41,544 nt of DNA. Source: Sulfuricurvum sp. Its GTDB lineage: Bacteria; Campylobacterota; Campylobacteria; Campylobacterales; Sulfurimonadaceae. This document shows, piece by piece, positions 10,559 through 15,114 of this stretch. The DNA is taken from contig JAABPY010000159.1 of NCBI GenBank assembly GCA_011391735.1, positions 1 to 41,544 of the forward strand, given 5' to 3'. The notes under the pieces are model-generated. The model made no database searches. It had not been told where the DNA came from and was given only the letters and a program-made list of their open reading frames with translations. The translations under genes and the position numbers were made by a program. How positions within the stretch are numbered: position 1 is the first letter of the stretch; each line of letters opens with the position of its first letter.

Positions 10559-12898
10559 ATGATACGCTACTTTTTGCTATTCATTTGGCTCCCTGTGTGT
10601 GCGCTGGATCTCTTTGTTCAAAGTGGAAAGGAGGATTCTAGTGGCTACAGTATCTTACATCTACGTGAATCTAAACCATTTAAATGTACAGCAGTTCAGA
10701 ACGATTTTCATGAAATTGTTCGTGTTGAATGTACGCTTCCAAATTTGCACCCTTTGCCCACGATTGTTAGCTCCTATTTTATACTTCAACAAAATGCAAC
10801 TACCCTAACGATCCTTCCAAAAAAGAAAATCGCCCTTTTTCCTGTTGGATTTGATTTGACTAAGGATACCCATCTGTATCACTCCGACAAGATGCCCATA
10901 CATCATTGGAATATCGTAGGATACGAGACAAAAGTCCCAATGTTGAAGCAACTCAGTCCAAAACCTAATGGCTTGAACTTACCACTAAAAATTGCCAAAG
11001 AGAGTTACCCAAGTGTAGGGTGGATTGATCTCAAGGGAAATCCTATAAAAATAAAGAGCACTAAAGATGTAACGGAGTACGTGGATTTAAAAAAAGCGTA
11101 TAGTGCTAAGGATTATAAGCAGGTACTTACGATTGCAAGGAATACTCTTAAAAAACATCCTAATTCAATTTTCAATAATGAGTTTCTTCTGTATCAAATA
11201 AGAGCGTTACATTATCTTGAAAATTTCGAGGAGCTTTTACCTCTTTCAAAACAGTTTATCCGTCTCTATTCAAGCGATAGTAATATTGCAGAGGTGTTGG
11301 CATACACAGCCGATGCGTACAGTCAGTTAGGACAAAACAGTGATTCTGATTATTTTTATGATCGTCTCTTTAATGAATACGCAGATGACCCTTTTGCAGC
11401 ACAAGGGATGTTTATGAAAGCGAAACATTTGGATGTGATGATGGATAGTAAAAAGGCAGTCAAATATTATCGTGAAGCACTCTTTCGTACCAAAGATGTT
11501 AATTTAGCATCAGCGTGCGCATTTGAGTTGGCACGTCTGGAGATGGGAGCAAATCATCTTCCCAAAGTAAAAGAGTATCTTGAGAAAATAGCGAAGGTTA
11601 ATCCCAATTATTTTGTCGAGATAAAAGAGAAGTCAATGGAGATGATTGGGTTACTCAAAGAGCATAATGAGTTCCTTACAGCAGCGAAGATTACGAAGAT
11701 TTTACTTGCAAAAGCACTTCCTAAATCGGATGAACATCAACTGTTGCTTAAAAATATAGGATTGTTGTATGCAAGTGCAGGGGAGAAACAAAAAGCTCTT
11801 GATGCGTTTAATGAATATCTTAAACTCTACCCTAATGGTGATTCAGTCGATCAAATTCAACGTGCCAAAGATGGACTCTTTTTTGAAAAAGAGGAGCCGA
11901 AGGGGGAGAGCGGACTTAAAAAATACAATGAGTTGATACAGCGCTACGGCAATGACTCTATAGGGCATAAAGCACTTTATAAAAAAGAGCAGCTCCTTTT
12001 TAAAGAGAAAAAATACAATGAAATCTTAAAAATTGAAAATGATTTGTATCAGTTGGATACGACCAAGTACCCCGATGCTAATGCGATGATTACCCAAAGT
12101 GCTACCGAGATAACCAAACAAAAGCTTCAAGCACTCAAGTGTTCCGAAGCATTAGCAATGCAAAAAATGTATAAAATCAAACTCCCCCTCCAATGGGATG
12201 GATTGACATTTGATTGTGCGTTACAAATGAGTAATTTTCCTGTTGCCCAAGCGATGGTTGCCAATCATCTTAAATCCAAAAATATTGGAGAGTTGCAGTT
12301 ATGGCTTTCACGTGCTATGAAGACCAATTTTGCGCAGGGGAAATATAACGAGGCGACCAAAGCAGGAAAAGATCTGATCGATTTATTAGAGGCACAAAAA
12401 AATCCCCCTCTTAATGATATTTATCGATTGATGTTTGATACAGCGCAACGAAGTGCAGACGGTGAGGGGATGGTACGCTATATCAAAGGGTGTGAAAGTG
12501 TTTTTGGGGTTGATTTCAAAGACATTGAACGCTACACACAGATGGTTGCGTTGGGGGTAAAACGTAAAGATTATGTGATGATCCAAAGCTATGCCCAAAA
12601 AGTGGTCACATTGCAAGGGCGAACGAAAACCTACACCCAGTCCCCGTTCATCGAGTTTACCCTTGCTCAATCGTTGATGAATCGGGATAAGAACAAAGAG
12701 GCAGTAGAGGTTCTCAAAACTTTAAATCCCCGTACCCTTACCAACGAAAAAAGGGCACGTCAACAATACCTTATGGGGTCATTACTGATGAAGCTTGGAC
12801 GTAACAGTGAAGCCAAAGTCGCTTTTAATGGCAGTATCAAAGCCGATAAAAATTCGGCGTGGGGGAAACTAGCTAAGGATGCGTTAGGATTGTTGTAA
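10559..12898 (+). CDS. pflA: Large TPR-repeat protein with N-terminal signal, PflA-like (paralysed flagella protein A)
   Basis: 779 aa, signal peptide, helical/TPR-like body; immediately after nuoN, the position of pflA in Campylobacter jejuni. Confidence 0.75.
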   Translation: MIRYFLLFIWLPVCALDLFVQSGKEDSSGYSILHLRESKPFKCTAVQNDFHEIVRVECTLPNLHPLPTIVSSYFILQQNATTLTILPKKKIALFPVGFDLTKDTHLYHSDKMPIHHWNIVGYETKVPMLKQLSPKPNGLNLPLKIAKESYPSVGWIDLKGNPIKIKSTKDVTEYVDLKKAYSAKDYKQVLTIARNTLKKHPNSIFNNEFLLYQIRALHYLENFEELLPLSKQFIRLYSSDSNIAEVLAYTADAYSQLGQNSDSDYFYDRLFNEYADDPFAAQGMFMKAKHLDVMMDSKKAVKYYREALFRTKDVNLASACAFELARLEMGANHLPKVKEYLEKIAKVNPNYFVEIKEKSMEMIGLLKEHNEFLTAAKITKILLAKALPKSDEHQLLLKNIGLLYASAGEKQKALDAFNEYLKLYPNGDSVDQIQRAKDGLFFEKEEPKGESGLKKYNELIQRYGNDSIGHKALYKKEQLLFKEKKYNEILKIENDLYQLDTTKYPDANAMITQSATEITKQKLQALKCSEALAMQKMYKIKLPLQWDGLTFDCALQMSNFPVAQAMVANHLKSKNIGELQLWLSRAMKTNFAQGKYNEATKAGKDLIDLLEAQKNPPLNDIYRLMFDTAQRSADGEGMVRYIKGCESVFGVDFKDIERYTQMVALGVKRKDYVMIQSYAQKVVTLQGRTKTYTQSPFIEFTLAQSLMNRDKNKEAVEVLKTLNPRTLTNEKRARQQYLMGSLLMKLGRNSEAKVAFNGSIKADKNSAWGKLAKDALGLL
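12869..12897. repeat. Left copy of a 29-bp perfect direct repeat (ctagctaaggatgcgttaggattgttgta) flanking the AAA/DUF4143 gene
   Basis: Identical to 14202..14230; lies in the last codons of pflA. Confidence 0.97.
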
Positions 12899-12923
12899 GT
12901 TTCTTATATTCAGGTTAAAAAAC

Positions 12924-12951
12924 TTGAAGTTAGTCTATGAAATTATATAGT
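12924..12951 (+). promoter_or_regulatory. Candidate sigma70-type promoter for the AAA ATPase gene
   Basis: TTGAAG (12924-12929), 16-nt spacer, TATAGT (12946-12951); AT-rich, inside the inserted segment. Confidence 0.4.
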
Positions 12952-12987
12952 ATAATGGTATAAATTACATCATTATAGAGGTTAATT

Positions 12988-14190
12988 ATGAAAAAAAGAA
13001 CCTTGGAAACCATTTTAAAAATTGCACTTGAGACTTTTCCTGTTGTCCTTTTAAATGGGGCGAGACAAGTAGGTAAATCGACACTTGCATTAGAAAATTT
13101 TAAAAATTATCTTACATTTGATGATGGAGAGTTAAGGCTCTACGCAAAAGAGAATCCAAAAGCTTTTCTCAAAAATCTTGAACTCCCCATTTGCCTCGAT
13201 GAGATACAAAAAGTCCCTACACTTCTTGAATATATGAAAATGCAAATAGACAAAGAGCGAGTGAATGGAAGTTTTTTACTTACAGGCAGCTCTAATGTAC
13301 TCGACCATAAGGATGCAAAAGATACACTTGCCGGCAGGCTTTGTGAACTAAGACTTCATCCGCTTAGCTCAAAAGAGAAAAACGACAAACCGTATGAGAA
13401 TGTGATAGAAAAACTTCTCTCCCGTGACTTTAAGCTTGCTAAAAAAGAGTACAGTGATGAGATTATAAAACATATTATTGATGGCGGCTATCCTGAAATT
13501 TTGACGCTTGAGGGAATGCAGAGAGATTTGTGGTTTAAGTCCTACACCGCAACGTATATAGAGCGAGATGCAAGAGATTTAGCAGACATAAGGGACATTG
13601 ACAGCTTTATCAAGTTTGTTAATGTATTGGCTTCAAGAAGCGGCACGCTCCTAAACAAATCAACTCTAAGCAACGACATAGGGATAAAAGATGTCACAAC
13701 GGACAATTATCTCTCTATTATCAGCAGAATCTATCAAGCAACCCTTTTAAAGCCCTATTTTGCGAACATCGGCAAACAGTTTGCAAAATCTCCCAAAGTG
13801 TTTTTCAATGACACAGGAGTGCTTTGTTCACTGCTTAGAATCGATTCCAAAGAGAAACTTTTGAGCTCACCGTATAGCGGACAAGTGTTTGAAACGTACA
13901 TTTTTTGCGAACTCCAAAAACATCTCTCTTATATGCAAAAAAGTGGCACACTGTACCACTACCGAACAAATGACAAAAAAGAGATCGATTTTATCGTCGA
14001 AGTGGATAATGAGATACTTGCCATAGAAGTCAAACAAAGTAGCAGTGTCAAAAAAGATGATTTCAAGCATATCATCGACTTTCAAAGCAGATGTACTCAA
14101 AAGTGCTTAGGGGTGGTGTTTTACAATGGCGAAATGGTTGTTGAGCTTGAGGATAATTTGGTAGCTTTGCCGTTTGGAATGTTTTTGTAA
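12988..14190 (+). CDS. AAA family ATPase with C-terminal DUF4143 / PD-(D/E)XK-like domain
   Basis: Walker A GARQVGKST, Walker B ICLDEIQK, LLTGSSN sensor-like segment, C-terminal EIDFIVEVDNEILAIEVKQS nuclease-like motif. Confidence 0.9.
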   Translation: MKKRTLETILKIALETFPVVLLNGARQVGKSTLALENFKNYLTFDDGELRLYAKENPKAFLKNLELPICLDEIQKVPTLLEYMKMQIDKERVNGSFLLTGSSNVLDHKDAKDTLAGRLCELRLHPLSSKEKNDKPYENVIEKLLSRDFKLAKKEYSDEIIKHIIDGGYPEILTLEGMQRDLWFKSYTATYIERDARDLADIRDIDSFIKFVNVLASRSGTLLNKSTLSNDIGIKDVTTDNYLSIISRIYQATLLKPYFANIGKQFAKSPKVFFNDTGVLCSLLRIDSKEKLLSSPYSGQVFETYIFCELQKHLSYMQKSGTLYHYRTNDKKEIDFIVEVDNEILAIEVKQSSSVKKDDFKHIIDFQSRCTQKCLGVVFYNGEMVVELEDNLVALPFGMFL

Positions 14191-14201
14191 ATAGTAAACT
14201 T

Positions 14202-14230
14202 CTAGCTAAGGATGCGTTAGGATTGTTGTA
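14202..14230. repeat. Right copy of the 29-bp direct repeat
   Basis: Identical to 12869..12897; contains the miaA stop codon (CTA at 14206-14208 on +). Confidence 0.97.
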
Positions 14231-15114
14231 GCGATTGTATACAGCTCTTCCACCCCTGCACGTATCTGAACATCAAACTGATTGTTATTAAAGGTCTGTT
14301 GCCGTTTTGCCAGTTGTGCCGTGTGGGTTGAAATCTCTTCTAAAAGCTTTTGTTTCGTTATCTTCCCATCCAAAAATTCCAACGTCTCAATAATCCCTAT
14401 TGCTTTCATACTGTTGGGCTCTCTCCCATAAAGACGTTCGAGTTCTGCCACTTCATCGATGATCCTTGCGGAAATCATCTTTTGTGTCCGTAATGCTATA
14501 CGCTCTCGCAAGAAGCTACGCGCAATGTCGATGGAGAGAATAGGGCAGTTATGTAGGATGGGTTGGGGGGGATGGTCGTGAAACCATTGGGAGGGGGCCA
14601 TGGAGGTTTGAAGGGCAATATGGAGCATTTTTTCAATGCGGTAGCGGTCATTGGGGGTTATTTTTGCCATTGTTAGGGGATCAATATTGGACAAAAAGCG
14701 GTGAGCCTCTTCCAAATCGTTGAGCATTAAAGCCGTTTGCAACCGTATTTCTTCGGAGATTTCTGGAAGTGTTGATAGCCCCTCTACCATACTCTTGAGA
14801 TAAAAACTACTTCCCCCCACAAGGATAAGATTTTTCCCCTGTTGTGTTGCGGCAGCGTGGGCACGATGATATTCGTCAATAAAAGTAAAAACGTTGGCAT
14901 TTTCATTGGGGGCAAGGGTATTGATACCAAAATGATCGACCGCCAAAAGTTCTTCGTAAGAGGGTTTTGCCGAGGCAATATCGATCTCACGGTAGATGCT
15001 TAGTGAATCAATAGAGAGGATAAGGGCGTTATGTTCTTGTGCAAGTGCTAAGGCTAAATCGCTTTTCCCTGATGCGGTGGGTCCGATGATGGCGAGTTGT
15101 TTCATAAAGGACAT
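14206..15114 (-). CDS. miaA: tRNA dimethylallyltransferase
   Basis: IIGPTASGKSDLALALA, LSIDSLSIYREIDIASAKPS, LVGGSSFYLKSM motifs. Start may be 15105 (MKQLAIIGPT). Confidence 0.95.
   Translation of the reverse strand: MSFMKQLAIIGPTASGKSDLALALAQEHNALILSIDSLSIYREIDIASAKPSYEELLAVDHFGINTLAPNENANVFTFIDEYHRAHAAATQQGKNLILVGGSSFYLKSMVEGLSTLPEISEEIRLQTALMLNDLEEAHRFLSNIDPLTMAKITPNDRYRIEKMLHIALQTSMAPSQWFHDHPPQPILHNCPILSIDIARSFLRERIALRTQKMISARIIDEVAELERLYGREPNSMKAIGIIETLEFLDGKITKQKLLEEISTHTAQLAKRQQTFNNNQFDVQIRAGVEELYTIATTILTHP

What the first reader, a model, noticed from the sequence alone, without database searches (positions are those of the whole stretch)
12869..14230. Solitary AAA/DUF4143 ATPase gene inserted into a convergent gene overlap, flanked by a perfect 29-bp direct repeat that repairs both neighbours
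The 29-mer ctagctaaggatgcgttaggattgttgta occurs at 12869-12897 (last codons of pflA) and again at 14202-14230 (last codons plus stop of miaA on the other strand). In the right copy the pflA frame would also read ...KLAKDALGLL followed by TAG. The likely ancestral arrangement is therefore pflA and miaA convergent with a 26-bp 3' overlap. The ~1.3-kb ATPase segment entered exactly there with the overlap duplicated, leaving both genes intact. Twenty-nine bp is long for a classical transposon target-site duplication, and no transposase is present. The segment appears to carry its own promoter. This resembles an undescribed single-gene insertion mode for DUF4143 ATPases.
Basis: partly seen in the sequence, partly recalled or inferred. 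Interest (0 to 1): 0.85.

Follow-up and report, generated by a model that had tools for sequence, protein, structure and literature searches.

The report
Defence-like gene inserted, target duplicated
A single nuclease-ATPase gene, probably acquired from another genus, sits where two neighbouring genes once overlapped tail to tail, and a 29-base stretch of the old overlap was duplicated so both neighbours stayed intact; this is a documented but poorly understood way for accessory genes to enter genomes.

Summary
Observation confirmed. The 29-mer occurs twice (12869-12897, 14202-14230) and nowhere else in the held assembly. In 27 of 29 congener loci examined pflA and miaA are directly adjacent and convergent, and the closest ones carry one copy of the overlap. 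So a 1304-bp segment (12898-14201: promoter plus one AAA_14/DUF4143 gene) entered with a 29-bp target duplication. It was acquired horizontally: 93-94% identical proteins occur in another genus at unrelated sites, whereas miaA is only 55-56% identical there.

The 'undescribed DUF4143 insertion mode' is not supported. Other DUF4143 insertions in Campylobacterota also carry flanking duplications, of widely varying length (28 bp proven by an empty site in Arcobacter caeni; ~57, ~70, ~315 and 831 bp elsewhere). Two unrelated patchy families, Fic and SLFN_AlbA_2, show them at the same rate (6/55 against 6/56), while ordinary neighbouring genes do not (0/156). This matches 'insertion with long target duplication', reported in 2000 for restriction-modification genes of Helicobacter pylori. 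The cargo matches PADLOC's phage-defence candidate PDC-S01. Likely route, inferred: a DNA fragment was captured at a chromosomal break, its two ends joined to the target at offset positions, and selection kept events that spared both neighbours.

The parts
10559..12898 (+). pflA-like gene (DUF7494 + TPR), left neighbour, kept intact
   Evidence: ORF, Pfam; C-terminus KLAKDALGLL conserved in congeners
12869..12897 (+). left copy of the 29-bp target duplication (end of pflA)
   Evidence: single copy in empty sites of congeners
12898..14201 (+). inserted segment, 1304 bp, holding one gene only
   Evidence: difference between window and empty sites
12936..12987 (+). conserved promoter/operator region of the mobile gene (TATAGTATAATGG -10 region, imperfect palindrome, ribosome-binding site)
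   Evidence: upstream conservation among homologs at unrelated sites begins about 52 bp before ATG
12988..14190 (+). AAA_14 + DUF4143 ATPase/PD-(D/E)XK-type protein, 400 aa, PADLOC PDC-S01
   Evidence: Pfam, PADLOC E=3.6e-121, invariant Walker and D334/E347/K349 residues, AlphaFold model pLDDT 90
14202..14230 (+). right copy of the 29-bp target duplication (holds the 3' end of miaA on the other strand)
14206..15114 (-). miaA, right neighbour, kept intact
   Evidence: Pfam IPPT, NCBIfam TIGR00174

Best explanation
A horizontally acquired, promoter-carrying single gene of the PDC-S01 family (AAA+ ATPase fused to a PD-(D/E)XK-type domain) was inserted into the overlapping 3' ends of pflA and miaA with a 29-bp target duplication. 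It is a case of 'insertion with long target duplication', the transposase-free mode known for restriction-modification genes. Shown: empty ancestral site, duplicated host sequence, horizontal origin, gene-only insert, no recombinase in the insert, variable duplication lengths at other insertions, and the same repeats around unrelated patchy genes. Inferred: a DNA fragment (taken up, or from a plasmid) was captured during repair or replication at a break; one end joined the target downstream of where the other joined, so the stretch between was copied twice. Selection kept events in which the doubled stretch covers the gene overlap, which is why both neighbours look repaired.
For: Empty sites: in 27 of 29 other loci of the genus the pflA end lies directly next to the miaA end; L002, L003, L004, L005, L006, L008 and L009 carry the single overlap sequence. 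Horizontal transfer: ATPase 93-94% identical in g2 (Sulfurimonas-type) genomes G224 and G238 while miaA is 55-56% identical there; found in only 37 of 398 class genomes; an 83% homolog lies on mobilizable Aliarcobacter plasmid pACIB. Second proven case: Arcobacter caeni L068 against empty site L168, where the flanks overlap by exactly 28 bp; each copy has one private base change, so both come from the recipient's site. Further DUF4143 cases: L047 about 70 bp with single copy in L152, L065 about 315 bp, L100 831 bp, L067 57 bp, L104 about 57 bp with empty site L248. Statistics: 6 of 56 against 0 of 156 ordinary ORFs (Fisher p = 0.0003, computed with 57). Unrelated Fic 4/28 and SLFN_AlbA_2 2/27 also positive. 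ComEC is present in all six genomes tested, so uptake of DNA is possible.
Against: The joining step is not observed. Most DUF4143 loci (50 of 56) show no detectable repeat, so many are old, were lost, or entered otherwise. In G027 another gene sits at the same pflA/miaA junction without a duplication. Donor sequence just outside the unit is unknown, so microhomology at the junctions cannot be judged. Several cases (L065, L067, L100) have no empty-site comparison, and L047 is nested with another change.
Confidence: 0.8

Rival explanations
1. The DUF4143 protein moves its own gene: its PD-(D/E)XK nuclease makes a widely staggered break and the gene is pasted in, so the gene is a one-gene mobile element.
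For: The nuclease signature D334/E347/K349 and Walker residues are invariant. Several inserts hold hardly more than the gene (55-90 bp upstream, 2-15 bp downstream in window, L053, L059, L100, L104). Homologs at unrelated sites share only promoter to stop codon.
Against: Fic and SLFN_AlbA_2 genes, which share no such nuclease, show flanking long repeats at the same rate (6/56 against 6/55). No conserved ends. Duplication length varies from 28 to 831 bp.
Confidence: 0.07
2. A transposase acting in trans moved a non-autonomous element with a long target-site duplication.
For: Perfect direct repeat, and a 6-base AAGTTT/AAACTT inverted match at the insert ends (read).
Against: No shared terminal sequences among homologs at unrelated sites. 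Duplication length is not constant. No transposase in the insert.
Confidence: 0.05
3. Site-specific integration, with the 29-mers as attL/attR made by an integrase supplied elsewhere.
For: Identical direct repeats at a gene 3' end.
Against: Repeats at different insertions are unrelated in sequence and length and derive from each recipient site. No integrase in the insert. The 29-mer is absent from the viral contig collection.
Confidence: 0.03
4. Single crossover of a circle or plasmid that carried the gene plus a short copy of the pflA-miaA overlap (Campbell integration), or homologous exchange with a donor already holding the gene there.
For: Would also give direct repeats. A plasmid-borne homolog exists.
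Against: No homolog found next to pflA-miaA in any genome examined. In A. caeni both copies derive from the recipient's sequence. 28-29 bp is short for RecA crossover (general knowledge).
Confidence: 0.08
5. Assembly artefact of a metagenome-derived contig.
For: The genome is fragmented (229 contigs).
Against: A 29-bp repeat is too short to mislead assembly on its own. Both genes are intact in frame. The same pattern occurs in the isolate genome of Arcobacter caeni.
Confidence: 0.02

Closest known systems
Insertion with long target duplication of restriction-modification genes (Nobusato et al. 2000; Furuta et al. 2010; cited in PMC1643837, PMC3031569, PMC3874152)
   Same: Accessory defence-type gene without transposase, empty site in relatives, long and variable direct target duplications, in Campylobacterota.
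   Different: Cargo is a solitary PDC-S01 gene rather than a restriction-modification system; hosts are Sulfuricurvum and other free-living Campylobacterota; here the duplication rescues two overlapping convergent genes.
PADLOC PDC-S01 (single-gene phage-defence candidate)
   Same: Profile match E=3.6e-121 over nearly the whole protein; ATPase fused to a PD-(D/E)XK domain as described in PMC12988326.
   Different: Nothing in the defence description concerns its insertion mode; antiphage activity is untested.
Transposed genes with flanking repeats in Arabidopsis (PMC2869330)
   Same: Genes at new sites flanked by long repeats of host sequence, often also found at the unoccupied orthologous site.
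   Different: Eukaryote; attributed there to recombination of circles between repeats.

Membership tests
Insertion with long target duplication | Relative with an empty site holding one copy of the repeat | tested here: met
   L002-L006, L008, L009; A. caeni case L168
Insertion with long target duplication | Long target duplication of variable length (order of 100 bp) | tested here: met
   28, 29, ~57, ~70, ~315, 831 bp; 29 bp in the window is at the short end
Insertion with long target duplication | No transposase or integrase in the insert | tested here: met
   One gene only in 12898-14201, AAA_14/DUF4143
Insertion with long target duplication | Cargo is a restriction-modification gene (frequent, not strictly defining) | tested here: not met
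   Cargo is PDC-S01; the literature says 'frequently associated'
Insertion with long target duplication | Joining mechanism | not testable with these tools
   Needs experimental capture of new events
PDC-S01 | Profile match and AAA + PD-(D/E)XK architecture | tested here: met
PDC-S01 | Protects against phage | not testable with these tools
   Needs plaque assays
DDE-type insertion sequence or MITE | Terminal inverted repeats conserved among copies | tested here: not met
   Homologs share only about -52 to stop codon; flanks unrelated
DDE-type insertion sequence or MITE | Constant short target duplication | tested here: not met
   28 to 831 bp
Integrase-type element | Shared core sequence in the flanking repeats of different insertions | tested here: not met
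   Repeats unrelated between sites

The most novel reading that the evidence does not exclude
PDC-S01 ATPase-nucleases drive their own relocation, making promoter-plus-gene units that are the smallest autonomous mobile elements without a recognised transposase, and use offset joining to double the target.
Probability: 0.07. Interest if true: 0.85.

Novelty: new member of a known kind. Interest (0 to 1): 0.5.

Why it matters
Long-target-duplication insertion was described from two Helicobacter pylori genomes in 2000 and its mechanism is still open. Here it is found across several Campylobacterota genera and around three unrelated patchy gene families, which supplies a collection of insertions, some with empty sites. 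That makes the question of how solitary defence genes enter chromosomes without transposases directly testable, and argues that the process is a property of the host or of DNA repair, not of the cargo protein. It also shows that PDC-S01, reported as one of the most common candidate defence genes, can move as a bare gene.

Tried and rejected
DUF4143-specific mode: rejected because Fic and SLFN_AlbA_2 controls behave alike. Conserved element ends: none found. Phage carriage: no close relative in viral contigs, only distant matches (at most 36%) in phage records, 29-mer absent from viral contigs. Solved structure by sequence: none; fold search gave only AAA+/STAND-like and CARF-nuclease-like partial matches with low TM-scores. 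Some repeats near DUF4143 genes are palindromic, dispersed-looking sequences (L053, L059) and were not counted as target duplications; AT-rich matches (L102, L209) are doubtful, and L209 still counts among the 4 Fic positives. 'of' does not accept locus handles, so L065 and L067 could not be given empty-site tests. Nobusato 2000 and Furuta 2010 were not read (Furuta is not held; Nobusato was not looked up), so their content is taken from papers that cite them.

Full report
WHAT IS THERE. The 29-mer CTAGCTAAGGATGCGTTAGGATTGTTGTA stands at 12869-12897 and 14202-14230, both on the + strand, without a mismatch. It has no other copy in the held assembly of 2.14 Mb, even with three mismatches. Between the copies lie 1304 bp with a single 400-aa gene (12988-14190), 90 bp before it and 11 bp after it. 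The left neighbour is a DUF7494/TPR protein of the PflA type; the right neighbour on the other strand is miaA. Joining the two flanks gives intact pflA (stop TAG instead of TAA) and intact miaA overlapping by 26 bp. The 29-bp duplication covers this overlap except for the last base of the pflA stop codon, which the insert supplies.

EMPTY SITES. All 41 genomes of the genus have miaA. Of the 29 other miaA loci fetched, 27 show the pflA end directly next to the miaA end. In the closest ones (L002 with 85% identical MiaA, then L003, L004, L005, L006, L008, L009) the junction is the single sequence ...GCTAAGGATGCGTTAGGATTGTTGTAG... or a near variant. The two exceptions are G027, which carries a different gene at this junction, and G012, whose miaA has no pflA end next to it.

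HORIZONTAL ORIGIN. Proteins 93-95% identical occur in several metagenome assemblies named Sulfurimonas and one named Helicobacteraceae, 87-82% in Sulfurovum-named and other genomes, at unrelated sites. In G238 and G224 the ATPase is 94 and 93% identical but MiaA only 56 and 55%. The gene is patchy, in 37 of 398 genomes of the class and 12 of 68 genera. A homolog with 83% identity lies on the mobilizable plasmid pACIB of Aliarcobacter cibarius. DNA similarity among homologs at unrelated sites runs from about 52 bp before the start codon, including a strong -10 region and an imperfect palindrome, to the stop codon and no further. There are no conserved terminal sequences.

THE SAME PATTERN AT OTHER DUF4143 INSERTIONS. 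I compared 700 bp upstream with 700 bp downstream of 63 DUF4143 loci by gapped local alignment; 56 had at least 300 bp on both sides. Mispaired flanks (402 pairs) never exceeded a score of 37. Six loci reach 46 or more: the window, L047 (about 70 bp, 82% alike), L067 (57 bp), L068 (28 bp), L065 (about 315 bp) and L100 (831 bp, a whole sirtuin gene on each side, 87.6% alike). Among 156 other ORFs in the same loci none reached 45; Fisher p = 0.0003, computed with a denominator of 57 instead of 56. In Arcobacter caeni (L068) the empty site L168 has both flanks meeting with exactly 28 bp in common, and each copy in A. caeni has one private base change, so both copies descend from the recipient's own sequence. 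L104 also has an empty site (L248) and a decayed left copy of the start of the downstream gene. L047 has a single-copy site in L152, but other congeners share part of its insert, so it is nested. Where the repeat ends can be placed, several inserts are nearly gene-only: 55-90 bp upstream and 2-15 bp downstream in the window, L053, L059, L100 and L104. L053 and L059 repeats are palindromic and may be dispersed repeats; I do not count them.

CONTROL THAT DECIDES AGAINST A DUF4143-SPECIFIC MODE. The same test on two unrelated patchy families in the same class gave 4 of 28 Fic loci and 2 of 27 SLFN_AlbA_2 loci with flanking long repeats. Examples are the start of an hsdR-like gene doubled around a Fic gene (L210, 52 bp) and about 100 bp of what reads as a RhuM-like gene start around SLFN genes (L238, L234). 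These gene names are my reading of the translations, not profile matches. One Fic case (L209) is AT-rich and doubtful. The rate equals that of DUF4143. The mode is therefore not a property of this protein family.

WHAT THE GENE IS. Pfam gives AAA_14 and DUF4143; PADLOC gives PDC-S01 with E=3.6e-121. A 2026 survey ranks PDC-S01 as the fourth most common defence system across prokaryotes, describes it as an ATPase fused to a PD-(D/E)XK domain, and notes that most such candidates lack experimental validation (PMC12988326). In 17 homologs the Walker residues and D334, E347 and K349 (motif EIDF...EVK) are invariant. The AlphaFold model is confident (mean pLDDT 90). Fold matches are partial: AAA+/STAND proteins, Orc/Cdc6, RuvB and CARF-nuclease proteins, with low TM-scores.

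HOW IT MOST LIKELY HAPPENED. Shown: insertion into an ancestral overlap, target duplication, horizontal source, no recombinase in the insert, variable duplication lengths at other insertions, unrelated repeat sequences at different sites. Inferred: a fragment bearing the gene was captured at a break or stalled replication point; its ends joined the target at two positions offset by 28 to several hundred bp, and the stretch between was present on both products. Widely staggered breaks with fill-in could explain the short duplications; offset joining during replication fits the long ones better. ComEC is present in the six genomes tested, so uptake of DNA is possible, but the route of entry is not shown. 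That both neighbours are intact is best read as selection among many events, not as a directed repair.

COMPARISON WITH WHAT IS KNOWN. 'Insertion with long target duplication' was found by comparing two Helicobacter pylori strains and is frequently associated with restriction-modification genes (Nobusato 2000, described in PMC1643837). [quoted passage not shown] PMC3031569). I did not read the original papers. The window case shares the observable features; it differs in its cargo and hosts, and its 29 bp is at the short end. I file it as a new member of a known kind.

VERDICT. The claim of a new, DUF4143-specific insertion mode fails on the Fic and SLFN controls and on precedent. The remaining interest lies in the collection of cases across families and genera, which makes an old open mechanism testable.

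Noticed in passing
L116 1583-3597 (G027:C4): In congener G027 the pflA/miaA junction holds a different insert (376-aa membrane protein) with an altered miaA end and no flanking duplication; the junction may be a recurrent insertion site.
   Followed up: partly
L210, L193, L198, L238, L234: Fic and SLFN_AlbA_2 genes in other Campylobacterota are flanked by 34-108 bp direct repeats, in L210 the start of an hsdR-like gene and in L238/L234 what reads as the start of a RhuM-like gene.
   Followed up: partly
L100 1185-4159 (G165:C45): A DUF4143 gene lies between two 87.6%-identical copies of a whole sirtuin gene; a second DUF4143 gene lies on the same 18-kb contig.
   Followed up: partly
window 12936-12987 and homologs: Strongly conserved upstream region with TATAGTATAATGG and an imperfect palindrome (GGTA..TACC), suggesting an autoregulated promoter that travels with the gene.
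   Followed up: partly
L053 470-498/1768-1796 and L059 2166-2178/3439-3451: Palindromic, REP-like repeats flank two DUF4143 insertions and may be dispersed repeats used as landing sites.
   Followed up: no
G000:C164:9131-10324 (L043): The window's genome holds a second, 44-45% identical DUF4143 gene on another contig.
   Followed up: no
L068 1087-4236 against L166 and L168: A 1049-aa ORF next to the A. caeni insertion is at least partly shared with L168 but missing in L166, so this junction appears to have taken up DNA more than once.
   Followed up: no
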